Both the position numbers and the translations under genes were made by a program. Positions 937 to 17,894 of a DNA stretch of 64,000 nucleotides are shown here, piece by piece. The stretch is taken from NCBI GenBank assembly GCA_025357755.1, contig JANXOP010000054.1, forward strand, positions 1 through 64,000, given 5' to 3'. Under the pieces are notes generated by a model. That model was given only the letters and a program-made list of their open reading frames with translations, ran no database searches and was not told the origin of the DNA. Positions within the stretch are counted from its first letter, which is position 1. Every line of letters starts with the position of its first letter. This DNA is from Kofleriaceae bacterium (lineage in GTDB: Bacteria > Myxococcota_A > Polyangia > Haliangiales > Haliangiaceae).

Positions 937-3900
937 GTGGCGGAGGTGCGTACATCGACGGAGCTAGCCGAGCTAGCGGAGCGCAAAGACCAACCAACGC
1001 AGATTGGCGGGTTTTTGCAGCGCGTGCGAGGCCTCGTCTATCGCCACGAGGCCAAGCGCGCCTCGTTCACCGCGATCGCAGCCCTCGGTGGGCTCGCGCT
1101 GGTGTTGCCCTTGATCGGTCACGCCGCGTCGACGAATCGCCCCCTCGCGATGGCCGTGCTCGGCATCGGCGGCCTGCTCGCGATCCTCGTCGCGATCGCC
1201 GCGACCGTGATCGGATGGATCGCACCGCGCCGGTCCTATGCGCACGATCGCGAGCTCGCACGTTGGGTCGGCCGGCGCCATCTGCCGGTCGCATCGGATC
1301 TGTTGTCGTCGGTCGAGCTCACGAGCTCGCCCGATCGCGTCGCTGCGCCCTCGGGAGATCTGGTCGGTGCCTTGATCGCCTCGACCACGGCGCAGCTCGA
1401 GAAGCTCGAGCCCGTCGCGTTGCTGCCGACGCACGAGATCGTGCGCGCGCGTGCGTGGATGCTCGGCGCGCTCGCCGCGAACCTCGCGCTCGTGGTGATC
1501 GTGCCGCACTTCGTCGCGCTCGGATGGCGATCGTTGGTCGCCGCGCCGCCCGCACCCTTCGACGGTGCCGAGCTCTCCGCGGTGCCGCTGGTCGGCGATC
1601 TCGGCGTCACGCTGACCGCCCCCGCGTATGCCAAGCGCAAGATCGTCGAGCTGCCATCGTCGTCGGGCGATCTGCGTGGCTTGCCCGGGACGGCGGTCGC
1701 GTTCAAGGCCAAGTTGCTCGTGCCTGCCACCGCAGCCGAGCTCGTGATCGAGCCGCTGGCAGGGACCGCAGGCACGCCCAAGCCCATCCCCGCGAAGATC
1801 GAAGGCGACACGCTCACCGCCGCGTTCACGATCGAACACTCCGCGCGCTACCGCTTCGCCGTCACCGATCCCAGCGGGGCCCGTTCGATCGAAGCGACGC
1901 CGCGCGCGATCGAAGCCGAGGTCGATCAGGCGCCGACCGTACAGTTGATGGCGCCCGGCGATCCTCTCGATGTCTCGAACTTGAAGTCGGTCGAGCTCGC
2001 CTACGTGATCGAGGACGACTTCGCCATCACCTCGGCCGAGCTCGTATGGGAGGCCGGCAAGGATCGCGGACGTAAGCCGATCGGCCTCGCTGGCCAGCCG
2101 ATCCAGGGCGCGCGCGCGCAGGGCAAGCTGACCTGGGACATCGCCGAGGTTCAGGTCCAATCCGGCGGTGAGGTTCGCTACTGGATCGAAGCGAAGGATA
2201 ACGACTCCGTCGGTGGGCCGAACCTCGGCAGGTCGCGCGAGCTGCACCTCCGCGTGATCTCGCCGCGCGAGCGCCACGAGGAGACCCTGAACCGCCAGCA
2301 AGCGGTCGCCGAGAAGGTGTTGAAGAACCTGGGCGCGCGGCTGGTCGGCCCGGGTGATGACATCGCGATGCGCGACGAGCTCGAGCATCAGATGCGCGAC
2401 GCGATCGTCGAGCTGCGCTCGGTAAGTGCGGCGTTCGAAAAAGATCCGCACGCGTCGGATCTCATGCGCAAGTCGCTCGCGGCGATGAGCGAGCGGCTCG
2501 ACAAGCTCGCGAGCTCCGAGCAACTCATCGAATCGAAGTTCGTGGCAAAGGGCGCGACGAAGGCGAAGTCCGGCACGTTCGGCGTGATCGATCCGAAGAT
2601 CATCGGCGAGCTCGAGGACGACACGATCAGCCTCGCCGATTGGTTGGATCGCGAGCGCGTCGAGGGCCTGCTCGATCTCACCGACGAGATCGCGGCGCAC
2701 CAGAAGCGGCTCGCGGATCTCCTCGCGCAGTACGCGCGCACCAAGGATCCGCGCTTGCTCGAGGAGATCGATCGCGAGATGCGCGCACTCGATCGCACGT
2801 ACGCGGAGCTCCAGAAGCATCAACAGGGCATGCCCGAAGATGTGATGGATCAATACGTCAGCCGTGATGCGGTCCAGGCGCAGCAAGGCTCGAGCTGCAT
2901 GGCCGAGGTCGCGGCGCTCGTCCACGCGGGCAAGACCGCGGCGGCGCAAGCCAAGCTCGAGACCTGCCAGCTCCAGCACCAGCGCGCCTCGGCGTCGCTC
3001 GAGGGCTCGCTCGCGCAGCTGCGCGGTGACAAGTTTGGCGACGAGCAAAAGAAGCTCGACGAGGTGATGAACGAGCTCGCAGATGTCGCGAAGGACCAGG
3101 ACGACATCGCGGCCGAATCGAACCGGCTGTTCGAGTCGTACGCGCAGAAGGCCGACGAGGTCGCCCGCGATCACCGCCGCGAAGCCAGCAAGAAGGTCGG
3201 CGCGCTCGTCGAGAAGTTGAAGAAGCGGATCGATGCGATCAACGAATCCGGGCTCACGCCGTTCGCGAAGGAGGAGCTCGATATCGTCCAGCGCCGGCTC
3301 GGCGACGTCGAGCACATGGTCGGCGACGGTGACCTTGCCGAGGCGCTCGGCATGGCGCGGCAGGCCAAGACCAGCCTCGAGACGATCGCCGGCGAGCTCG
3401 AGTCCGCGATCAACGACGATCCGAAATCGAAGTGGGCCGATGCGACCGCCGATGCGCTCGATGGCGTCGAGCGGACCCAGCCGGTCGCGAAGGACCTGAT
3501 CGACGAGCTTTCGGCGCTGTCGCCGCGGCCCGATCAGATCATGAGCGGCGATGATCAGAAGTCGCTCGAGCGCTTGCGGCGGCGCCAGGCCATGAACCAG
3601 CAGCGCGCGAAGCGGCTCGGCGATCGCACCAAGCAACTCGGTGGGGAGCTCCCGGGCGATACGGCAGGCGAGCTCGGCAAGAAGCTCGGCTCCGCGCTCG
3701 ATCACATGGGCAAGGCCGACGAGCGGATGAAGGGCAAGGATCCCTCGGGCGCGCGCGAGGCCACGCGCTCGGCCGCGGACGATCTCGCCAAGGCGCGCGA
3801 TCGGGCGCGCAGCGCCGCCCGCCAGGCCCAGCAGAATGCGGTCGGGGACGAGCCGATCCGGATCCCCGGTGCCGACGAGTATCGCGCGCCGGAGCGCTAT

Positions 3901-3999
3901 CGCGAGGACATCCTCGAGGCCGCGAAGAAGCGTGGCGCGAAGGCGCCCGAGGGCTACGACGATCAGATCAAGCGCTACTACGAGGATCTCATCAAATGA
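937..3999 (+). CDS. Large membrane-anchored coiled-coil protein, DUF4175-like
   Basis: This is a 1020-residue protein with two hydrophobic segments near the N-terminus (about residues 45-65 and 72-92) and a third near 175-195. A beta-rich region follows to about residue 440, then a long charged coiled-coil domain to the C-terminus. The layout resembles DUF4175 proteins that accompany MoxR and DUF58 genes in several phyla; this is recalled, not searched. It is the first gene of the operon and overlaps the next gene by ATGA. Its likely place is the inner membrane with a large soluble part, possibly a scaffold or substrate for the MoxR-VWA machinery. The GTG start lacks an obvious ribosome site, so the exact start is uncertain. 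Confidence 0.75.
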
Positions 4000-5546
4000 A
4001 AAGACTCGTCGTCGCAGCGCTGTTGGTCGCGAGCGCGGCGAGTGCGCGCCACGATCGCACCGTCACTGGTGACGTGATCAAGGCCGCGCGCCTCCTGCAA
4101 TCGTCGCGGCTCGAGGAAGCGCGCGTCGTGTTGCAGGAGCTCGAGAAGCGCGCGGGCGACAACCCGGATGTGAAGTGGCTCGCGGCCGAGCTCGCGTTCC
4201 AGACCGGCGATTACGCCGCCGCCGTGAAGGGCCTCGACAAGGTCGCCGACGACGCGGCTGATGGCATGGCCGGTCAGACCAAGAAGCTCGCGGCCTCCAC
4301 GCTCGCGGTGACCGAGACCTTCGTCGAGACCCGGTCGCCCAAGGGTCACTTCTTGATCCGCTATGCGCCTGGCAAGGACGCCGCGATCGCCGAGCTGGCC
4401 GGCGACATCCTCGATGCCGCCTGGCAGACCACCGGCGAGGACCTCGGGCTCCAGCCCGCAGATCCGATCCGGGTCGAGATTCTCGGCGCGCCGAAGGACC
4501 TCGCGCAGATGTCGCCGCTCTCGGAGACCGAGATCGAGACGACCGGCACGATCGCGCTGTCGAAGTACAACAAGCTCATGGTGGTGTCGCCGCGAGCGAC
4601 GCTGTTCGGCTATCCGTGGATGGACACCCTCGCGCACGAGTACACGCACTTGATCGTGTCGCGGATCTCGCACGACACCGTGCCGGTATGGATGCAAGAA
4701 GGACTCGCACGGTTCGAGCAGACGCGCTGGCGGCGCCCGCCCGAGGTGGTGCTGACCGCGACCGAACAAGCCCTGTTGACCGCGGGCCTCCGCAAGGGCC
4801 GCCTGATCACGTTCGACGAGATGCACCCGTCGATGGCCAAGCTGCCGAGCCAGGAAGCGGCCGCCCTCGCCTACGCCGAGGTCTACACGCTGATCGGCTG
4901 GATCCAGACCAAGGTCGGCTACAAGGGCCTACGCGACATGCTCGCGTTGCAAAAGGATGGCAAGAGCGCGAAGCGCGCGGTGACCGAGGCGATGAACCTG
5001 CCGTGGCCGCAGGTCGAGACGGAGTGGCACGCGCACCTCAAGGTCGGCGACGGCAAGGCGCGCGCGGGCCGTCCGATCAAGTTCGGCAAGGGTGGCGCGG
5101 ATTCAGAGAATGTCGGGATCGAGCAGGTTTCGGCCCGCGCCCGCAAGCACGCCCGGCTCGGCGGCATGCTCCGCGCGCGCGGCGCGCTCGAGGCTGCGGC
5201 CGTCGAGTACGACAAAGCCTTGGCCGCCGGCGGTGGTACGCCGGAACCGTTTGTCGCAGGCAAGCTGGCGCGCACCCTGGTCGAGCTCGGCCGGTACGAC
5301 CGTGCGATCGAGCTCGCCACCCCTCTGGCGGCCGCAGATGCCGATGATGCGGTGGCGTCCGTGACGCTCGGCATGGCCCGGTCCGCGAAACAAGACTGGG
5401 CCGAGGCGATCGTCGCGTACGAACAAGCGTTGCGCGTGAGTCCGTTCGATCCGCAAACTCGCTGCGGTCTTGCCGAAGCGTATGCCAAGATGAAGGATGC
5501 ACGGAGTGCTCGCGAGCGAGCCGCGTGTGACCTGTTGAAGAACTAG
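3996..5546 (+). CDS. Exported TPR protein with MA-type (gluzincin) metallopeptidase domain
   Basis: This 516-residue protein opens with a short signal peptide ([17 protein letters not shown]). TPR-like helices come next, then a peptidase MA-like domain with the zinc motif HEYTH and a downstream EGLARFE, which would supply the third ligand in gluzincins. TPR repeats return at the C-terminus. The expected role is a periplasmic zinc protease or a protein-interaction module with a peptidase fold; the substrate is unknown. It starts inside the stop codon of the DUF4175-like gene (ATGA) and is followed 7 nt later by moxR, so it is part of the same operon. All HExxH residues are present, so it could be active. 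Confidence 0.8.
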   Translation: MKRLVVAALLVASAASARHDRTVTGDVIKAARLLQSSRLEEARVVLQELEKRAGDNPDVKWLAAELAFQTGDYAAAVKGLDKVADDAADGMAGQTKKLAASTLAVTETFVETRSPKGHFLIRYAPGKDAAIAELAGDILDAAWQTTGEDLGLQPADPIRVEILGAPKDLAQMSPLSETEIETTGTIALSKYNKLMVVSPRATLFGYPWMDTLAHEYTHLIVSRISHDTVPVWMQEGLARFEQTRWRRPPEVVLTATEQALLTAGLRKGRLITFDEMHPSMAKLPSQEAAALAYAEVYTLIGWIQTKVGYKGLRDMLALQKDGKSAKRAVTEAMNLPWPQVETEWHAHLKVGDGKARAGRPIKFGKGGADSENVGIEQVSARARKHARLGGMLRARGALEAAAVEYDKALAAGGGTPEPFVAGKLARTLVELGRYDRAIELATPLAAADADDAVASVTLGMARSAKQDWAEAIVAYEQALRVSPFDPQTRCGLAEAYAKMKDARSARERAACDLLKN

Positions 5547-5553
5547 CCTTGCG

Positions 5554-6645
<1,092 letters not shown>

Positions 6646-6651
6646 GGGCAC

Positions 6652-7578
6652 GTGAAGCTCGATCCTGCGCAGCTCCAACGACTCGGTAGCTTGCCGATCA
6701 AGGCGCGCGTGATCGTCGAGGGCGCCCTGTCGGGGCTGCACCGCGCGAGCGTCCGCGGCAGCTCCGTCGAGTTCGCCGAGCACAAGGAATACTCGATCGG
6801 CGACGAGCTCCGGCATGTCGACTGGAAGGCGTACGCGAAGCTCGATCGCTACTACGTGAAGCAGTTCGAGCAGGAATCGCAGCTCACGGTCTACCTGGTC
6901 CTCGATGCCTCCGCGTCGATGAAGTTCGCGGGCGGTGGACTCGCGAAGCTCGAGTACGCCGGGCTCGCGCTAGCCGCGCTCGCGTATCTCGTGATCCAGC
7001 AGCAAGACAAGGTCGGGCTCGTCGCATGTGGCGATCGCGGCATCGAGACCATGGTGCCGCCCCGCGCGCGCAGCTCCCATCTCCACGATCTGCTCGGCGT
7101 GCTCGATCAGCTGATGCAGAAGGGCGGCACCGGCGACGAATCTCCCGCCGAAGCGCTCGGCCGGATCGCCGAGCTCTCGCGCCGCCGCCGCTCGCTGATC
7201 ATCCTCGCGAGTGATCTGTTCGATCCCGCGGACGAGACCGTCCGCGCGCTCTCGAACCTGCGCGCTCAGCACCACGATGTCTCGGTCCTCCACGTCCTCG
7301 ATCCGCACGAGCGCACGTTCCCGTACGAGGGCCTCACCGAGTTCCAGGCACTCGAATCAGGCGCCAAGTTACTCGCGAATCCGCTCGCGATCCGCAAGGA
7401 CTACCTCGAGCGGATGGACGCGTTCGTCGCGAAGTGCCGCGGCACGCTGGCGAACGCCGGCGTCGATTACCACGAGGTCTCGACCGATCGTCCGCTCGAG
7501 GAGACGCTGCTCGAGCTGCTCGTCTCGCGCGCGCGGTTGCTGCCCGGCGCCCGTCGGGATGCTGGGAGGACCAGCTAG
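6652..7578 (+). CDS. DUF58 domain protein (VWA-like), MoxR partner
   Basis: This 308-residue protein shows the DUF58 hallmark stretch EYSIGDELRHVDWKAYAK followed by a VWA-like fold with a MIDAS-type DASASM motif. DUF58 proteins nearly always follow moxR genes and are thought to be its clients or adaptors. It starts at a GTG six nucleotides after moxR. Its TAG stop shares one base with the GTG start of the next gene. It has no signal peptide and is probably cytoplasmic or membrane-associated. Confidence 0.93.
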   Translation: MKLDPAQLQRLGSLPIKARVIVEGALSGLHRASVRGSSVEFAEHKEYSIGDELRHVDWKAYAKLDRYYVKQFEQESQLTVYLVLDASASMKFAGGGLAKLEYAGLALAALAYLVIQQQDKVGLVACGDRGIETMVPPRARSSHLHDLLGVLDQLMQKGGTGDESPAEALGRIAELSRRRRSLIILASDLFDPADETVRALSNLRAQHHDVSVLHVLDPHERTFPYEGLTEFQALESGAKLLANPLAIRKDYLERMDAFVAKCRGTLANAGVDYHEVSTDRPLEETLLELLVSRARLLPGARRDAGRTS

Positions 7579-9698
7579 TGGGCTTCCTCGCGCCCTTCAT
7601 GCTGATCGGGGCGATCGCGATCAGCGTTCCGATCGCGATCCATCTGATCGGCCGGCGACGCGCGAAGATCGTGTCGTTCGCGGCGCTCGATTTCTTGATG
7701 GCGACGAAGCGCAAGACCGCGCGTCGCCTCCAGCTCCGCGAGCGCATGGTGTTGCTCGTCCGCGCCCTCGCCTGCCTCGCCGTCGCGATCGCGCTCGCGA
7801 AGCCATTCACGTCGTGCGAGCGCAAAGGGCCCCAGGTCACCCGCGGCCCGCAAGCCGCCGTGCTCGTCATCGATGATTCGTTCGCTGCTGGCTACCTCGT
7901 CGAGGGCAAGCCGTGGATCAAGCGCGCGAGCGACGAGGCGCGCCGGATCCTGACCCAGCTCGGCCCCGAAGCCGAGATCGCGATCGTCCGCGCCTCCGAG
8001 GGTGCCGAGCAACCGACCGAGCTCACGCGCGATCACCTGCGTCTTCGCGACCAGTTACTCGCGCTCGAACCGAGTGCACGGCCCGCCGATACCACCCGCG
8101 CCCTGACCCGCGCCGCCCACCTGCTCTCCGCTTCGAGCCACGAGCGCAAGACCGTGTTCTTGATCTCGCTCGTCGCAAAATCGGGCATCCAGGCCGACGA
8201 GGCAGCGTGGGGAAAAGACGGTCCGACGCTCGTCACCCTCGATCTGCGCCCGAGCGCGATGCCGAACCTCGCGATCACGAGCCTCAAGGTTGATTCGGAT
8301 CCAGGCACCGGCACGCGCGGCGTCGGCTTCGATGCCGAGGTCGGCAACTTCAGCGACACCCCGCAGAAGGTCGAGCTCTCGCTCTCGATCGCCGATCACG
8401 TCGTCGCGCGCGGCCAGCTCGAGCTCGGGGCGCACGAGAAGAAGACCAAGCGCTTCCTCGCGGCCCTCCCAGCCGGTAACCGCGCGAGCGATGCCTCGGT
8501 CTCGCTCGGCACGCCCGATGCGTTGCCGACCGACGACCGCCGCTTCGTCCGCGCCACCCTGCGCGACGAGGTTCGCGTGCTGCTCGTCGATGGCGATCCG
8601 CGCACCGTCCGCCACGACGACGAGCTGTTCTATCTCGAGGCCGCCCTCCGCCCCGGCGATCGCGAAGACTCCGGCACCTCGGTCCGCTCGATCACCGCCG
8701 AGGAGCTCGCCGGCATCACGAAGATCGCGGGCAAGCCCGCCACGATCAACCTCGACGACTTCGACGTCGTCGTGCTCGCGAACGTCGCCGCCCTCCCGCC
8801 CGAGCGCGTCGCCGTCCTCGCCGAGTGGGTGCGCGCCGGTGGCAGCATCCTCGTCGCACCGGGCGATCGCGTCGACCCCGCCGCCTATGACAAGACCATG
8901 CTCGCGCTGATGCCGCAGAGCCTCCGCGATCCGATCGACACCACGTGGGGCGCCTCCCCCGAGGACAAGGACAGCCGCGCGCTCCACCTCGTGAAGTGGG
9001 AGGCCGATCACCCGATCTTCGCGCCCTTCTCCAAGGACGCCCCCGAGCTCGCCGACGCGAAGTTCTACAAGATCTCGCTGCTCGGCCCGACGACCGCGAC
9101 CTCCGATCGCAAGGTCCTCGCGCGCTTCACGAACGGCGCCGCCGCGCTGGTCGAAGCCTCGATCGGTTCGGGCCGCACGCTCCTGTTCACCTCGACGCTC
9201 GATCGCGATTGGAACGACCTCCCCATCCATCCCGGCTTCCTCCCGCTCATCCAGGGCGCGGTGCGCCACCTCGCGCGCAAGCACGCGCTCGGCACCGAGT
9301 CCGATCACCTGGTCGGCGCGTCGGTCGCCTTACCCACCGGCGACCTCCGCAAACTCGAGGTCCGCGGCCCCGACAACCTCGGCGCCGTGTTCGAAGGCGA
9401 CCGGATCATGAACCGCAGCTCGGTGCGCTACGGCCGCACCGAGAAGCCGGGCATCTACCGCGTGATCGGCACCGATCAGACCGGCGCGACGCACGAGCGC
9501 GACGAGCTCGCGTTCGCGATCAACCTCGATCCGCGCGGCAGCGATCTCACGGCCGCAACCGCATCGGCGCTGCCCGCCTCCGGGACGGGTGGGGCTTCGG
9601 CGCCCGCCGACAACACACGGCGCATCGAGCTGTGGCACGCGCTCGCCGCGATCGTGCTCTTGCTGCTGCTCGCTGAAGGCATCCTCGTCCAGCGCTAA
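7578..9698 (+). CDS. BatA-like membrane protein with VWA-type and glutamine-amidotransferase-like regions
   Basis: I place the start at GTG 7578, just after a strong ribosome site (GGGAGGA, 7-nt spacing), rather than the longer ORF at 7434, which overlaps the DUF58 gene. The 706-residue product begins with a BatA N-terminal domain (membrane helix FMLIGAIAISVPIAIHLIG, second helix near ALACLAVAIALA). A VWA-like domain starting AVLVIDDSFAAGYL follows, then a large domain resembling the amidotransferase-like part of such proteins. It ends in a C-terminal helix (ALAAIVLLLLLAEGILV). The MIDAS-type motif (DDSFAAG) differs from the usual DxSxS. It is the last gene of the operon and probably spans the inner membrane with the VWA part in the periplasm. 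Confidence 0.85.
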   Translation: MGFLAPFMLIGAIAISVPIAIHLIGRRRAKIVSFAALDFLMATKRKTARRLQLRERMVLLVRALACLAVAIALAKPFTSCERKGPQVTRGPQAAVLVIDDSFAAGYLVEGKPWIKRASDEARRILTQLGPEAEIAIVRASEGAEQPTELTRDHLRLRDQLLALEPSARPADTTRALTRAAHLLSASSHERKTVFLISLVAKSGIQADEAAWGKDGPTLVTLDLRPSAMPNLAITSLKVDSDPGTGTRGVGFDAEVGNFSDTPQKVELSLSIADHVVARGQLELGAHEKKTKRFLAALPAGNRASDASVSLGTPDALPTDDRRFVRATLRDEVRVLLVDGDPRTVRHDDELFYLEAALRPGDREDSGTSVRSITAEELAGITKIAGKPATINLDDFDVVVLANVAALPPERVAVLAEWVRAGGSILVAPGDRVDPAAYDKTMLALMPQSLRDPIDTTWGASPEDKDSRALHLVKWEADHPIFAPFSKDAPELADAKFYKISLLGPTTATSDRKVLARFTNGAAALVEASIGSGRTLLFTSTLDRDWNDLPIHPGFLPLIQGAVRHLARKHALGTESDHLVGASVALPTGDLRKLEVRGPDNLGAVFEGDRIMNRSSVRYGRTEKPGIYRVIGTDQTGATHERDELAFAINLDPRGSDLTAATASALPASGTGGASAPADNTRRIELWHALAAIVLLLLLAEGILVQR

Positions 9699-9744
9699 AC
9701 GTACGTACCCACATCCGAGAGCTCGAACTCGAGGTCGTCGATTC

Positions 9745-10395
9745 TCACAACGATCCGCTGAACTTGAACGGGCGATCTTGATCATCGAAATGGACTTCGA
9801 ACGTGGTCGCGCCGCGCTGCGCGCTCACCGCCGAAGGACGCTGCTCGACCGCGAATCCCAGGCCACGAAGAAAGACCGCGACCGCGGTCGGTGCTTCGCC
9901 AAAGATGAATGTCATCATGTCGAGGACGAGCCCCGGAATGGCTGCGGTCGAGAGCTGGGTGACATCGAGCTTCACGTCGGTGACCACGAGCATCGCGATC
10001 GCCGAGCCGACATTCGCGGCGAACACCGGAAATCCACCCGCGAGCTCGCCGCACACCCACGCGAGCTCGTACGGCTTGACCCATTTCGCGGCGACTTTTG
10101 GCTCGCGAAACACCGCGTTGCCCGGCTCGTCGCCGCGCTTGCGCAACCACGTCGCCATCGCGAGCGAGCTCGCCCAACCGGCAGCGCCCGGGTTCGCCCA
10201 TGCCCACATGAAGGTGTCACCCGAATAGGTGCCGAGGATTTGCACATGGTGGACGCGGTCGCCGAGGGTGAGCTCGCCGCGATCGAGTGCGACGCTCCAC
10301 GTGCCGCTGGTATCGAACATGTGTGCCCGTGCGCGCCCCATCAACGCATGGTCCTGCACGGCGAGGTCGTATTGACTCAGATCGAGATCGGACAT
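9745..10395 (-). CDS. DUF6882 family protein, function unknown
   Basis: This 216-residue soluble protein contains the segment LGTYSGDTFMWAWANP and the following helix region typical of the DUF6882 family, as recalled from family members. No catalytic motif, signal peptide or membrane span is visible. It is transcribed convergently with the BatA-like gene and lies just left of the truncated nagZ copy, so it marks the left flank of the repeat-bounded segment. Confidence 0.7.
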   Translation of the reverse strand: MSDLDLSQYDLAVQDHALMGRARAHMFDTSGTWSVALDRGELTLGDRVHHVQILGTYSGDTFMWAWANPGAAGWASSLAMATWLRKRGDEPGNAVFREPKVAAKWVKPYELAWVCGELAGGFPVFAANVGSAIAMLVVTDVKLDVTQLSTAAIPGLVLDMMTFIFGEAPTAVAVFLRGLGFAVEQRPSAVSAQRGATTFEVHFDDQDRPFKFSGSL

Positions 10396-10517
10396 CTAAG
10401 CTCCGAGCGCTAGCCTAGACGCCGGTCGCAGTAAATTCCTCGGGTTGTCGCCCGATTTTTCGGCCCCTGCGTTGGGTCTCGGATGCGATCCGTCCTCCTC
10501 GGCGCCGCGCTGCTCAC

Positions 10518-10690
10518 GCCAGCGTCACGCGCGACCGCCGAGACGATCCGCGAGCCGGCGATGCTCGAAGCTCCCGACGACCTCGCGCGACGGCGCGGGA
10601 TGCTTCGCCTGATTCGCGACATGCGCGGCCTTCATCGCGCGGACGCGCGCCGCGCTCTCCCCGATCCGACGGCGCAGCTCGGAGTCGCGC
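10518..10690. repeat. Left copy of a 173-bp direct repeat (nagZ 3' end)
   Basis: This stretch aligns without gaps to 16740-16912, with 158 of 173 positions identical by hand count (about 91%). Both copies have the same orientation. The right copy is the 3' end of the intact nagZ; the left copy is an orphan. The two bracket about 6 kb of accessory DNA. Similarity stops sharply at 10690 and fades to the left of 10518. Confidence 0.9.
10525..10690 (-). pseudogene. Orphan 3' fragment of a nagZ-like gene
   Basis: Read on the minus strand this encodes the last 55 or so residues of a NagZ-type protein (from RDSELRRRIGESAARVRAM to RLADRLGGRA) and ends at the same stop position as the intact gene. 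It differs from the intact copy at 15 bases: 9 silent and 6 causing five amino-acid changes, with no indels. That pattern suggests it diverged while still coding, before being cut off from the rest of its gene. There is no start codon or upstream nagZ sequence, so it cannot make a functional enzyme. Confidence 0.85.
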
Positions 10691-10775
10691 GGGATCCGGG
10701 CGCGCGGTACCCGACTACGGGAGCGGATCAAGCCCAGTGGCCGCTCGTTCGCGACTCGAGCGGACCATCACAGGC

Positions 10776-11168
10776 CTAATCGCCGAGCGTCCGGAATCCT
10801 TTTCCAGCCAGGAGTCTTTCGTCGACGGTCGCGAGCACGAGGTCGTAGACGCTCGCCGTGGCGGCGATGAATCGATCCGCCGGATCCTGGTGAGCCAGCC
10901 CGACGCGCCGGCTCTCCTTGGCGACCTCGTACGTAACAGGCGCCTCGGTGAGGCGCGAGGCATCGAGGGCGTTCGCGATCCAGCGCTGCGGATCAGCTTT
11001 TAGACGAAGCCGACCGGCCTCGATCAAGAGCTCGACCTCCCAGACCGAGATCGGCGACAGCCAGAGCTCGTTGTCCGCGGCGTCGAGCGCCTTCGCGATC
11101 CGCGCCGGGAGTCGCTTGGTGTCGGCGAAGCCCCATAACCAGATGTGCGTATCGAGCAGGATCTTCAT
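10776..11168 (-). CDS. vapC: VapC-type PIN-domain ribonuclease toxin
   Basis: This 130-residue PIN-domain protein has the first acidic residue in MKILLDTHIWLW, the second in SVWEVELLIEAG, and the later pair in HQDPADRFIAATA. These acidic residues bind metal in VapC RNases that cut tRNA or rRNA. I placed the start at ATG 11168, which overlaps the antitoxin stop codon (ATGA); the ORF track's longer version only adds out-of-frame antitoxin sequence. The catalytic residues look intact, so the toxin is probably active. It lies within the repeat-bounded segment. Confidence 0.9.
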   Translation of the reverse strand: MKILLDTHIWLWGFADTKRLPARIAKALDAADNELWLSPISVWEVELLIEAGRLRLKADPQRWIANALDASRLTEAPVTYEVAKESRRVGLAHQDPADRFIAATASVYDLVLATVDERLLAGKGFRTLGD

Positions 11169-11416
11169 TTTCTGCGCTTCTTCATCGCGAGCACTTCCCA
11201 CTCGACGTCGAGCGGCGCCACGAGATCGCCCACGAACGTGACGGTTCCTTCGCCGGCGCCGATCCATGTGCGCCCGGCAAGGTCCGGCTTCGGCGGGGAG
11301 ATGTCTGCGATCGGGCGGCCGAATCGAGTCACTCGCAGAACCCGTCCAGTCTTGCGAACTCGTTCGAGCGCCGCCAGGCACGTGGCTTTGAACTTCGAGA
11401 TCGGCATCGTGTCCAT
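11165..11416 (-). CDS. Phd/YefM family antitoxin
   Basis: This 83-residue protein has the Phd/YefM N-terminal DNA-binding fold (MPISKFKATCLAALERVRKTG, then RFGRPIADISPP) and a C-terminal tail that would neutralise the toxin. It is encoded immediately upstream of and overlaps vapC. Such antitoxins bind their own promoter. The ATG at 11416 is only six bases from a possible -10 box, so the internal ATG at 11407 is an alternative start. Confidence 0.88.
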   Translation of the reverse strand: MDTMPISKFKATCLAALERVRKTGRVLRVTRFGRPIADISPPKPDLAGRTWIGAGEGTVTFVGDLVAPLDVEWEVLAMKKRRK

Positions 11417-11452
11417 TCGAAAATATTACCATGGTCAAAGACTATGGTCTAA
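11417..11452 (-). promoter_or_regulatory. Candidate promoter and operator of the toxin-antitoxin pair
   Basis: On the minus strand a TAATAT -10-like box (11423-11428) is separated by 18 bp from TTAGAC (11447-11452). Overlapping this are the 8-bp palindrome ACCATGGT (11428-11435) and two copies of ATGGTC at 11431 and 11444, spaced 13 bp apart. Repeats of this kind fit autoregulation by a Phd-type antitoxin. The stretch is AT-rich against its GC-rich surroundings. Confidence 0.5.
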
Positions 11453-11854
11453 CTCTTCCCGGCTTGACCATCACCAACGGCGCAGGGTGGATCGTACGCC
11501 GTGAAGCTTCTTGCTCGAGCGTCCGCCCGAGTTCGCTACCTCCGATGCCGACGCGTGGATTTTCGGCAATCCACCGATCGCTCGCGCGAACCGATCCGCG
11601 TGACCCCACGTCCGTGGCTCGACGACGCCTGGATCGTCTACGCGTTACCAGCGCGCGAAGCTCCGAATCCGAGGTCCCTCGAGGCCGCGCGAAGGACCCA
11701 AGTCGAGGACGACTACCAACCCCAACCCGACGACGATTACATCACCCGGCAAAAGTAATTGACGCCAATCACGTGGGGTACGACACCGCTTCTATGCGCT
11801 CATCAGCAACCAAAACATGAGCCTGCGCGCCGCCTTCAAAATCAAGGGACAGCC
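11417..11854. other. Intergenic stretch with TA promoter and no confident gene
   Basis: Apart from the toxin-antitoxin promoter, this 438-bp stretch holds only an 85-codon plus-strand ORF (11501-11758). The first part of that ORF is Arg-rich and its end acidic (QVEDDYQPQPDDDYITRQK). I do not recognise it and do not count it as a gene. It may be a remnant of inserted or eroded DNA. Confidence 0.5.
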
Positions 11855-12415
11855 ATGGGCAAAATGACGCCTGCCGGCCTCCGTAGTGCCGCACTGGGCA
11901 CCCAAATCTCAGCGTTGACCTGCGCGCCAGACGGCCTGCAACTGCTGGCCAAGCGCTTGCCCCGCGCGGGCCGCCCAGCCTTTGTCAAACTCCATCCGCA
12001 GACCCTCGATCCGGTCGACGTCGAGCTGCCTTTCCGGTTCATCAAGGCACGCTGGCTGCCCATCAGCACGGTCGATACGGCGTACGCCACGCGCGGACTC
12101 ATCTGGCGGGTGGGCCGATTCGGCCAAGGCCTGTTCGTCTCCAAGTCAAACGGAGGACCGCAGGACATGCCACCGCCGTTCAACGACCCCAAGCTCACCG
12201 TCACCGCCTTCGCCATCAGCCCAGACGAGCGCCTAGCCCTGGTGGGTAACGCAAGCGGGTTTGTCGCGGTGTTTGACACGGCGATGGACAACGAGCGCTT
12301 CGGCCAGCGCCTGCACCGGGGCCATGTGACGGCGGCCTGCTTTGCGCCGGACGGCAAGCAGGCCTTCACCGGCAGCGCGGGCGGCGAGTTGTGCGCCATC
12401 GACCTGCCGCAATGA
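11855..12415 (+). CDS. Short WD40-like repeat protein, probably a fragment
   Basis: I chose ATG 11855 because it follows an AAGGGA ribosome site at 5-nt spacing; the ORF track begins earlier. The 186-residue product contains two recognisable beta-propeller blades (FAISPDERLALVGNASGFVAVFD and GHVTAACFAPDGKQAFTGSAGG) and weaker repeats before them. A full WD40 propeller needs about seven blades, so this is either a truncated gene or a partner that assembles with others. It shows fewer GATCG/CTCGAG-type codon runs than its neighbours, which hints at a foreign origin. Confidence 0.6.
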   Translation: MGKMTPAGLRSAALGTQISALTCAPDGLQLLAKRLPRAGRPAFVKLHPQTLDPVDVELPFRFIKARWLPISTVDTAYATRGLIWRVGRFGQGLFVSKSNGGPQDMPPPFNDPKLTVTAFAISPDERLALVGNASGFVAVFDTAMDNERFGQRLHRGHVTAACFAPDGKQAFTGSAGGELCAIDLPQ

Positions 12416-12932
12416 ACGGCGGCAAGCTACCGTCACCGCCGACCCATGCAGCTCACCGTCGAGCTGCTATCGAGCGCGGGCATGCCCCGATCACACGTGC
12501 GTGCTGCGCTTCACGTTCATGCTGTAGAACCAGCCGGGTAAGACGTTCGTCGTATCGCATGCTGAGCGCCCAGCGTCGGGCAATGGTGATTCTCGCGCGG
12601 ATCGTCAACGAACAGCATGCTGCAGGCTCGTCGCGAACCGCGCGCCCGACGAGCTTCGTGGCTGGCTGGCGGCGGTCCAAATCGCGCTCGCCGATACGCA
12701 GGACCAAGTTCCGAGCGGGGCCAGCCTCCTTGCGACGACCACGCACAAGCTCTCCGAGCAGACGCTGCGCGTGCTGGTTTCACTGCGGCAGGCGCGGCGG
12801 GACGACCTCGACTCCGTAGACGCGGGCGATCGCGGCGATCGTCAGGGGCGACTACTGCTGTGGCCACCCACGGGCCATGACCCGCAGATCATTGAGGCGC
12901 AGCTTGGAGCATCGGTTGCAGCTCGACGATCC
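12416..12932. other. Stretch upstream of the kinase gene with a possible gene remnant
   Basis: No complete gene is visible. From 12591 the reading frame of the downstream kinase is already open and encodes protein-like sequence (ANRAPDELRGWLAAVQIAL, then LRVLVSLRQARRDDLDSVD), but no ATG or GTG precedes it until GTG 12771. Other frames hold only Arg-rich spurious ORFs. This may be the eroded N-terminus of the kinase gene or a fused remnant of another gene. Confidence 0.4.
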
Positions 12933-15689
<2,757 letters not shown>

Positions 15690-15704
15690 CGCCCACCGGG
15701 TGGG

Positions 15705-16171
15705 GTGCAGCGCCTGCTCGTCGTCCTCGCCGTTCTGTTCGCGTTGCCCCTGATCCGCTCGTCGTGGGCACCCGCGTCTTTCCGCCGTTCGTGATCCATC
15801 GACCGGACGGCACGTATACGGGCATCAGCATCGAGCTGTAGAAGCGCGTCGCAACGGCAGCGAAGCTGACGTACACGATCCGCGAGGCGCCGATTCCATC
15901 GCTGCTCGATCCCGAGACGCACGGCCTCGACGCCGTGGTCTCCCTGCCGATCGCCCAGCGCAATGGGGCCCAGATGGATCTCACCCACGCCTTCTATTCG
16001 ACGGGCCTTTCGATCGCGACGCGCGCCGAACCGACGAGTGGCCTGTTCGCGATCGCATCGAAGATCCTGTCGCTGACCTTTATCAAGTGGCTCGCGATCC
16101 TCGCGAGCGCGCTCTGCGCCGCGGGGCTCGTGGTCTGGAGCGTCGTTCGCTCACCGGAGTTCAAGCCCTAG
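15705..16171 (+). pseudogene. Broken GluR0-like ligand-gated ion channel / substrate-binding gene
   Basis: GTG 15705 opens a signal peptide (VQRLLVVLAVLFALPL). The frame then shifts, and from 15752 the new frame reads like a type-3 solute-binding domain (VVGTRVFPPFVIHRPDGTYTG, then GISIEL). At 15839-15841 a TAG stands where homologues have the Trp of IELW, so one base change (TGG to TAG) would explain it. The same frame continues as HGLDAVVSLPIAQRNGAQMD and a membrane helix (WLAILASALCAAGLVVWSVV), then stops at RSPEFKP, just before the pore loop expected in GluR0-like receptors. Frameshift, nonsense codon and truncation together make a pseudogene. Family assignment is from motif memory. Confidence 0.75.
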
Positions 16172-16223
16172 CGGTCCGTCAAGATCACGTCGTGCGACTT
16201 CGGCCCCTGACCGGCATCTGTCG

Positions 16224-16538
16224 ATGAAGACCATGTCCAATCCTCGCCTGATGTTCCTGTTGCTCGTGCTCGTTCCGGCAGCCTGCAAGAGCAGCCCTGC
16301 GAACCAGTCCGCCGTCCCTGGCCCTGCACCGAGCAGCCCTGTCACCACCTCCACGTCTACCGCGGGATCCGCGACGGTCGGGTCGACCGAAGAGACGGAG
16401 CGCCTCGACATGTGTTGTTGCGAGGCGACGTTCGCAGGCGAGACACCGCCGAAGCAGCGGGTGATGATGAGCGAGACGCGCTGCCACTCCGCCACGGAAG
16501 ATGGCCTGTGCGTCGCTGCCAAGCTCTGCAAGAAGTAG
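16224..16538 (+). CDS. Small Cys-rich lipoprotein
   Basis: This 104-residue protein has a lipoprotein signal peptide with lipobox LVPAAC, a Ser/Thr/Pro-rich linker (PSSPVTTSTSTAGSATVG), and a C-terminal domain with seven cysteines beginning MCCCEATF and ending CVAAKLCKK. Such compact Cys-rich domains are common in exported myxobacterial proteins, but I recognise no specific family. An internal ATG (MSNPRL) three codons downstream is an alternative start. It is the last gene before the right-hand nagZ repeat. Confidence 0.7.
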   Translation: MKTMSNPRLMFLLLVLVPAACKSSPANQSAVPGPAPSSPVTTSTSTAGSATVGSTEETERLDMCCCEATFAGETPPKQRVMMSETRCHSATEDGLCVAAKLCKK

Positions 16539-16739
16539 CAAGCGCCTCGACGAGGCAGTTCGTGAACGATCTCCTGGTCCTGCGCGTCCGATCGCATCAG
16601 GAACTGACGCTGCTGCGATCACGGCGGCTGCGGGTCCGAGCAGCTCCGGGAATCACGAGCGATCACAGGAACACAGTGCCCGGGGCGAATCGGGTTTCGG
16701 CGGCTTTGCCGCGACGCTGCCAAGTCGCGGGCAGCACGC

Positions 16740-16912
16740 GCCAGCGTCACGCGCGACCGGCGAGACGATCCGCGAGCCGGCGATGATCGAAGCTCCCGAC
16801 CACGTCGCGCGACGGCGCTGGATGCTTCGCCTGGTTCGCGGCATGCGCGAGCTTCATCGCGCGCACCCGCGCTGCGCTCTCGCCGATCCTCCGGCGCAGC
16901 TCGGAGTCGCGC
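16740..16912. repeat. Right copy of the 173-bp direct repeat (within nagZ)
   Basis: This copy is the 3' end of the intact nagZ gene plus seven bases beyond its stop codon. It matches 10518-10690 in the same orientation at a constant 6222-bp offset with no gaps. It forms the right boundary of the accessory segment. Confidence 0.9.
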
Positions 16913-17871
16913 TCCGCGGCCTTCGTCAGCCCCTCGACGGCGAGGCGCTGGTTGTCTTCATTGCAGCACAACAGGATCACGTCGCAACCGGCGCGGATCG
17001 CACCGACCGCCGCATCATCGACACCCATGTGGGCGGCGATCGCCTTCATGTCGAGATCGTCCGAAACGATCACGCCGCGATATCCGAGCCGCGTGCGGAG
17101 TAACCCCGTGATGACCTGCTCCGACAGCGTCGCCGGGCGCTGCGCATCGAGCGCCGCGAACACGACGTGCGCGGTCATGATCATCGGCAAGTTTGCCGCG
17201 GCGGCCGCTTTGAACGGCGCGAGCTCGACCGCCTCGAGCCGCGCCCAGTCGTGATCGATACGCGGCAGCGCGAGGTGCGAATCGGTATCGGTATCGCCGT
17301 GCCCCGGGAAGTGCTTGCCGCACGCGAGGATGCCGGCGGCGTCGAGACCGCGCGCGAACGCGAGCGCGCGGCGCGTGACCGTGGTGGCGTCGTGACCGAA
17401 CGCGCGGTCGCCGATGATCGGATTCGCGGGGTTGGTGTGGACGTCGAGGATCGGCGCGAAATCGAGATCGAGACCGAGCGCGCGGAGCTCGTCGCCGATC
17501 GCGCGGCCGACCTGTTCGGCGAGCTCGGTGTCGAGCGGTGCGGCGAGCCCGTCGTGCGCCATCATCGGCGGCCACATCGTGGCGGGTGCGCGCACGCGCT
17601 GGACGAGGCCACCTTCTTGATCGATCGCGATCAAGGCCGGTGTGCCGTCGGGTGCGGCGAGGTGGAGGCCGCGATTCAGCGCGACGAGCGCGTCGAGATC
17701 ACAGATCTCCTGGGTGACCGCGCCGCCACCACCCACGGTCGAGATCGCGAGGTTGCGCTTGAACAGGATCGAGGCGCCGTAGGTTCCCGCCGAGAGCTGC
17801 TTGGCGAGCTCCTGCGGTAGCGTGGTTCCTTGAAAGCCGACCCACAGCAGCTGACCGACGTCATCGCTCAC
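16747..17871 (-). CDS. nagZ: Beta-N-acetylhexosaminidase NagZ (GH3)
   Basis: This 374-residue family 3 glycoside hydrolase has the NagZ catalytic loop KHFPGHGDT and the nucleophile motif VIVSDDLDM, plus LDFAPILDVHTNPANPIIGDRAF. It removes N-acetylglucosamine from muropeptides during cell-wall recycling in the cytoplasm. I start it at GTG 17871 (VSDDVGQLLWVG); the ORF track's extra N-terminus is unrelated low-complexity sequence. It lies 23 nt downstream of a lipoprotein gene on the same strand. Its last 55 or so codons are duplicated at 10525-10690, so the 3' end may have been replaced during an insertion. Confidence 0.93.
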   Translation of the reverse strand: MSDDVGQLLWVGFQGTTLPQELAKQLSAGTYGASILFKRNLAISTVGGGGAVTQEICDLDALVALNRGLHLAAPDGTPALIAIDQEGGLVQRVRAPATMWPPMMAHDGLAAPLDTELAEQVGRAIGDELRALGLDLDFAPILDVHTNPANPIIGDRAFGHDATTVTRRALAFARGLDAAGILACGKHFPGHGDTDTDSHLALPRIDHDWARLEAVELAPFKAAAAANLPMIMTAHVVFAALDAQRPATLSEQVITGLLRTRLGYRGVIVSDDLDMKAIAAHMGVDDAAVGAIRAGCDVILLCCNEDNQRLAVEGLTKAAERDSELRRRIGESAARVRAMKLAHAANQAKHPAPSRDVVGSFDHRRLADRLAGRA

Positions 17872-17894
17872 GCGGCGACAGTAGCACTGCGGCG

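What the first reader, a model, noticed from the sequence alone, without database searches (positions are those of the whole stretch)
10518..16912. Accessory segment bounded by direct repeats of the nagZ 3' end
By hand, 10518-10690 and 16740-16912 align without gaps at 158/173 identical bases and share orientation and stop-codon position. The left copy is an orphan nagZ tail. Established knowledge: elements that integrate at a gene's 3' end often bring a replacement 3' end and leave the displaced one at the far border. Inference: about 6.2 kb was inserted at nagZ. The copies are 9% different, with 9 silent and 6 replacement changes, so the event is old or the incoming copy came from a related strain. 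No integrase is visible.
Basis: partly seen in the sequence, partly recalled or inferred. Interest (0 to 1): 0.75.

Follow-up and report, generated by a model that had tools for sequence, protein, structure and literature searches.

The report
Displaced nagZ tail beside accessory DNA
A soil myxobacterium carries about 6 kb of accessory genes beside its nagZ gene, with a second copy of the gene's last 165 bases stranded at the far side; it looks like an ordinary scar of DNA acquired from a close relative, not a new mobile element.

Summary
The repeat is real: 10518-10690 and 16740-16912 match without gaps at 158/173 bases, and the left copy is an orphan nagZ 3' end (54 codons, stop, 7 bp). DUF6882 is in none of 29 other family genomes, so all of 9699-16739 is accessory, probably from at least two gains. 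The same junction holds other inserts in several congeners, so it is a variable site. No tyrosine integrase was found on this contig and no relative has a nagZ-tail repeat around its insert. Displaced 3' tails also occur at unrelated genes in this genome (Na/Ca exchanger, pentapeptide gene), so a nagZ-specific att site is unnecessary. Best reading: accessory DNA from a strain about 9% different in this gene end recombined at nagZ's 3' end (homology-facilitated illegitimate or Campbell-type recombination) and left the old tail behind. Assembly error is unlikely but needs reads to exclude. Ordinary; interest low.

The parts
7434..9698 (+). BatA-like gene (BatA N-terminal domain, VWA-like); core left border, convergent with nagZ in relatives
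   Evidence: Pfam BatA; synteny
9745..10395 (-). DUF6882 gene, accessory; probably a separate gain
   Evidence: Pfam DUF6882; absent from 29 family genomes
10518..10690 (-). Orphan (displaced) nagZ 3' end: 54 codons, stop, 7 bp
   Evidence: 158/173 identity to 16740-16912
10690..10691 (.). Junction between the truncated nagZ tail and accessory DNA (proposed illegitimate join)
   Evidence: end of homology
10776..11171 (-). PIN-domain (VapC-like) toxin gene
   Evidence: Pfam PIN 4.2e-16
11165..11416 (-). Probable Phd/YefM-type antitoxin gene overlapping the PIN gene
   Evidence: weak Pfam match E 0.0049, below cut-off
11759..12415 (+). WD40-like short protein
   Evidence: weak WD40 matches
12771..15689 (+). 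Ser/Thr kinase with TPR repeats
   Evidence: Pfam Pkinase 3.3e-39, TPR
15712..16171 (+). Frame broken by stops (likely pseudogene)
   Evidence: in-frame stops; no Pfam match for the open part
16224..16538 (+). Small Cys-rich, lipoprotein-like protein
   Evidence: ORF; one distant relative in the family
16740..16912 (-). 3' end of intact nagZ (second repeat copy)
16747..17874 (-). Intact nagZ (beta-N-acetylhexosaminidase)
   Evidence: Pfam Glyco_hydro_3; NCBIfam NF003740 above cut-off

Best explanation
The convergent junction between nagZ and the BatA-like gene is a tolerant, variable insertion site in this genus. In this strain, accessory DNA carrying a nagZ 3' end from a related strain recombined at the resident nagZ 3' end. 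The gene stayed whole, with the incoming end replacing or merging with its own, and the non-homologous end of the incoming DNA joined inside the resident copy's last 165 bp (10690/10691); or a small circle integrated by one crossover. Either way the old tail was displaced about 6 kb downstream. Shown: the repeat, the empty sites, the accessory nature of 9699-16739, no tyrosine integrase on the contig, other displaced tails in the genome. Inferred: the donor relationship, the crossover type, and that DUF6882 was a separate, probably earlier gain.
For: Empty sites in relatives: nagZ-BatA gaps of 3, 47, 54, 144, 221 bp. Variable inserts at the same junction in G006 (4.2 kb), G010 (4.1 kb), G028 (2.9 kb), G003 (2.4 kb), G004-C244 (1.3 kb), none sharing DNA with the window's insert. 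Cargo absent or only distantly present in relatives. The two tails are sisters with equal branches, 0.081 and 0.084, dN/dS about 0.21. Other displaced 3' tails in 1.45 Mb of this genome, both on the 3' side: Na/Ca exchanger (28 residues, 82%) and pentapeptide gene (91%). Published precedent: homology-facilitated illegitimate recombination proposed for T6SS effector modules, shifting back an old effector 3' end (PMC5361080).
Against: HFIR is orders of magnitude rarer than ordinary homologous recombination in laboratory tests (PMC5361080). No donor was found and the event's exact type is not shown. The silent-change argument is weak: P about 0.10 if one copy had been neutral. The genome is a MAG with 5.74% contamination, and sister MAGs show two haplotypes meeting inside nagZ.
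Confidence: 0.6

Rival explanations
1. Local duplication: nagZ (or its end) was duplicated in tandem, the left copy was truncated, and accessory genes came in between later.
For: The two tails are each other's closest relatives; G006 has two nagZ genes in different places, so duplication happens.
Against: No relative has a tandem nagZ or a tail repeat at this site; both copies changed mostly silently with equal branches, which a dead fragment should not show, though the test is weak.
Confidence: 0.17
2. A site-specific element integrated at the nagZ 3' end with a replacement end, and has since lost its integrase.
For: Geometry of a replacement 3' end and displaced old end; gene 3' ends are common targets (general knowledge).
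Against: No PF00589 hit on contig C154; no tail repeats around the inserts of relatives; the 25-bp shared block is in no viral contig; similar tails at unrelated genes.
Confidence: 0.12
3. Assembly chimera: a contig of one haplotype ending in nagZ was joined to the accessory contig of another.
For: MAG source; in G004, G007 and G010 contigs of two haplotypes (83-87% identical) end or start inside nagZ.
Against: A misjoin on a shared word would fuse the two nagZ copies, not leave a truncated one joined to unrelated DNA; no N in the region; BatA-like gene and the nagZ-upstream neighbour are single-copy in this genome.
Confidence: 0.1

Closest known systems
Sequential displacement of T6SS effector 3' ends and immunity genes by homology-facilitated illegitimate recombination (Kirchberger et al. 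2017, PMC5361080)
   Same: Homology-anchored insertion of new DNA with the old 3' part shifted downstream and no integrase seen
   Different: Anchor here is a housekeeping glycosidase gene, the cargo is not an effector-immunity module, and the displaced tail closely matches the intact gene's end
e14-type prophage integration at icd with a replacement 3' end (from memory; not found in the paper search)
   Same: Gene 3' end as target, a similar but not identical end supplied, old end left at the far border
   Different: No integrase or phage genes here and no recurrence at nagZ in relatives
Accessory-gene hotspot at a convergent intergenic junction
   Same: Same core flanks, different contents from strain to strain
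   Different: This one also holds a displaced core-gene tail

Membership tests
Homology-anchored insertion with displaced gene 3' end (HFIR or Campbell-type) | Direct repeat of the gene's 3' end flanking inserted DNA, same orientation, intact gene on the 5' side | tested here: met
Homology-anchored insertion with displaced gene 3' end (HFIR or Campbell-type) | Empty site in relatives | tested here: met
   nagZ stop to BatA-like stop 3-221 bp in five MAGs
Homology-anchored insertion with displaced gene 3' end (HFIR or Campbell-type) | A donor with the same cargo beside nagZ | tested here: inconclusive
   none among the family genomes held; same-species strains are not held
Site-specific integrative element at a gene 3' end | Integrase gene within or next to the element | tested here: not met
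   13 PF00589 hits in the genome, none on C154; serine recombinases were not searched by profile across the genome
Site-specific integrative element at a gene 3' end | Same att core used at this gene by related elements | tested here: not met
   no nagZ-tail repeat in relatives' loci; 0 viral contigs with the 25-bp block
Diversity-generating retroelement (VR/TR pair) | Differences concentrated at adenines of the template copy | tested here: not met
   0 of 15 differing positions are A in the orphan copy, coding strand
Diversity-generating retroelement (VR/TR pair) | Reverse transcriptase nearby | tested here: not met
   none among the Pfam-scanned genes between the copies

The most novel reading that the evidence does not exclude
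This lineage gains accessory DNA preferentially at gene 3' ends by an integrase-free process that repeatedly displaces gene tails: three clear cases (nagZ, Na/Ca exchanger, pentapeptide gene), all on the 3' side, with no orphan heads in a 1.45 Mb sample of this genome.
Probability: 0.08. Interest if true: 0.55.

Novelty: new member of a known kind. Interest (0 to 1): 0.25.

Why it matters
It is a readable scar of DNA uptake in an uncultured myxobacterial lineage and marks a variable site between two core genes. Displaced gene tails can be counted mechanically, so they could serve as markers of acquisition without mobile elements. The single case is ordinary.

Tried and rejected
Diversity-generating retroelement: rejected, no adenine-specific differences and no reverse transcriptase. 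Phage att site: no exact 25-bp match in viral contigs. tRNA or tmRNA target: none in the window. Phylogenetic incongruence of the intact nagZ tail: none seen, underpowered. Orphan nagZ tails in relatives: G004, G007 and G010 looked like cases at first, but their two nagZ pieces lie on separate contigs, are 83-87% identical, and G004-C244 carries its own BatA-like 3' end, so haplotype mixture is simpler. Enrichment of tails over heads: in the protein-level survey 3 orphan 3'-side tails against 0 orphan heads in this genome, too few to claim; 0 tails in 0.69 Mb of family sequence and 1 in 0.83 Mb of other loci. In the DNA-level survey one short (60 bp) orphan head appeared in L168. A weak 5'-side tail match in L191 (71% over 34 residues) was not pursued.

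Full report
Observation. Aligning 10518-10690 with 16740-16912 without gaps gives 158/173 identical bases. It is by far the strongest repeat in the first 26 kb and scores E = 2.6e-65 in the held genome. The right copy is the end of nagZ (minus strand, 16747-17874; Pfam Glyco_hydro_3; NCBIfam beta-N-acetylhexosaminidase above its cut-off). The left copy holds the last 54 codons and the same stop, then joins unrelated DNA at 10690/10691. Homology ends 7-8 bp beyond the stop. Differences are 9 silent and 6 replacement bases; dN 0.052, dS 0.245.

Where it is. The window is contig C154 of an 8.6 Mb, 450-contig genome, 90% complete with 5.7% contamination. The nearest named nagZ relatives are Myxococcales, Deltaproteobacteria and Kofleriaceae MAGs.

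Empty site. In congeners and family members nagZ and the BatA-like gene (window 7434-9698) are convergent and nearly touch: gap 3 bp in G002, 47 bp in G004-C279, 54 bp in G018, 144 bp in G024, 221 bp in G005. The window has 7048 bp there. DUF6882 is in none of the other 29 family genomes searched, so everything from 9699 to 16739 is accessory.

A variable junction. The same junction holds 4.2 kb in G006, 4.1 kb in G010, 2.9 kb in G028, 2.4 kb in G003, 1.3 kb in G004-C244 and 0.5-0.6 kb in G026 and G014. G003, G007 and G010 share about 2 kb of it (79-81%). None shares DNA with the window's insert, and none has a nagZ-tail repeat.

Cargo. A PIN toxin gene with a weak Phd/YefM-like partner, a WD40-like piece, a Ser/Thr kinase with TPRs, a frame broken by stops at about 15712-16171, and a small Cys-rich protein. 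Relatives of these are absent or distant in the family. The kinase matches PADLOC kinase models, mainly through its kinase domain, so no defence role is claimed. No Phage_integrase match lies on this contig.

Mechanism. The two tails are sisters with equal branches (0.081, 0.084), while every other genome is below 80% identical in this stretch. Both changed mostly silently. That fits two orthologous gene ends from strains about 9% apart that were brought together, better than a fragment decaying in place, but the test is weak (P about 0.10 for one neutral copy). Homology-anchored insertion, by HFIR or by single-crossover integration of a small circle, explains the geometry without an integrase. 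HFIR has been proposed for stepwise displacement of T6SS effector genes, including a shifted-back effector 3' end (PMC5361080).

Not only nagZ. A survey of 1.45 Mb of the same genome found orphan 3' tails downstream of a Na/Ca exchanger (L201, 28 residues, 82%, 0.85 kb away) and of a pentapeptide gene (L187, 174 bp, 91%, 3 kb away). A short S24-like ORF also has a 103-bp tail copy at 93% (L206), and L187 holds a second gene sharing the same tail, so paralogy is possible in those two. The three clear tails lie on the 3' side and the protein-level survey found no orphan head, but the numbers are too small to claim a bias. Survivor bias would give the same picture: an insertion that keeps the 5' part and supplies a 3' end leaves the gene working.

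Caveat. MAG contigs in this genus can mix haplotypes: G004, G007 and G010 each hold two nagZ versions, 83-87% identical, with contigs that end or start inside nagZ, and G004-C244 carries its own BatA-like 3' end. A misjoin on a shared word would fuse two nagZ copies rather than leave a truncated second one joined to unrelated DNA, so I put a chimera at about 10%. Reads would settle it.

Verdict. The integrase reading is unsupported and the DUF6882 prediction was not borne out. This is an ordinary acquisition scar at a variable junction; interest 0.25.

Noticed in passing
L187 (G000:C35) 1321-2694, 3848-4483, 5790-5959: Pentapeptide gene with an orphan 3' tail 3 kb downstream (91%) and a second gene between them that shares the same tail; a further 168-bp repeat (87%) follows at 6038 and 6751.
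   Followed up: partly
L201 (G000:C149) 12350-13402 and 11404-11493: Na/Ca exchanger gene with a displaced 28-residue 3' tail 0.85 kb downstream.
   Followed up: partly
L206 (G000:C155) 14003-14302 and 12593-12695: Short S24-peptidase-like ORF (weak Pfam match) with a 103-bp tail copy at 93% identity 1.3 kb downstream.
   Followed up: partly
L035 (G006:C119) 6960-8045: A second nagZ in G006 sits among NRPS-like, ABC transporter and glycosyl/methyltransferase-like genes (judged by eye from translations), away from the usual nagZ neighbours.
   Followed up: no
L042/L043 (G007), L044/L045 (G010), L036/L037 (G004): Contigs of one bin end or start inside nagZ with overlapping but only 83-87% identical copies: probably mixed haplotypes in these MAGs.
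   Followed up: partly
L039, L043, L045 at the nagZ/BatA-like junction: G003, G007 and G010 share about 2 kb of inserted DNA (79-81%) next to nagZ that the window lacks.
   Followed up: no
window 15712-16171: Reading frame broken by stops; its upstream part resembles a periplasmic substrate-binding protein by eye, but the open part has no Pfam match.
   Followed up: partly
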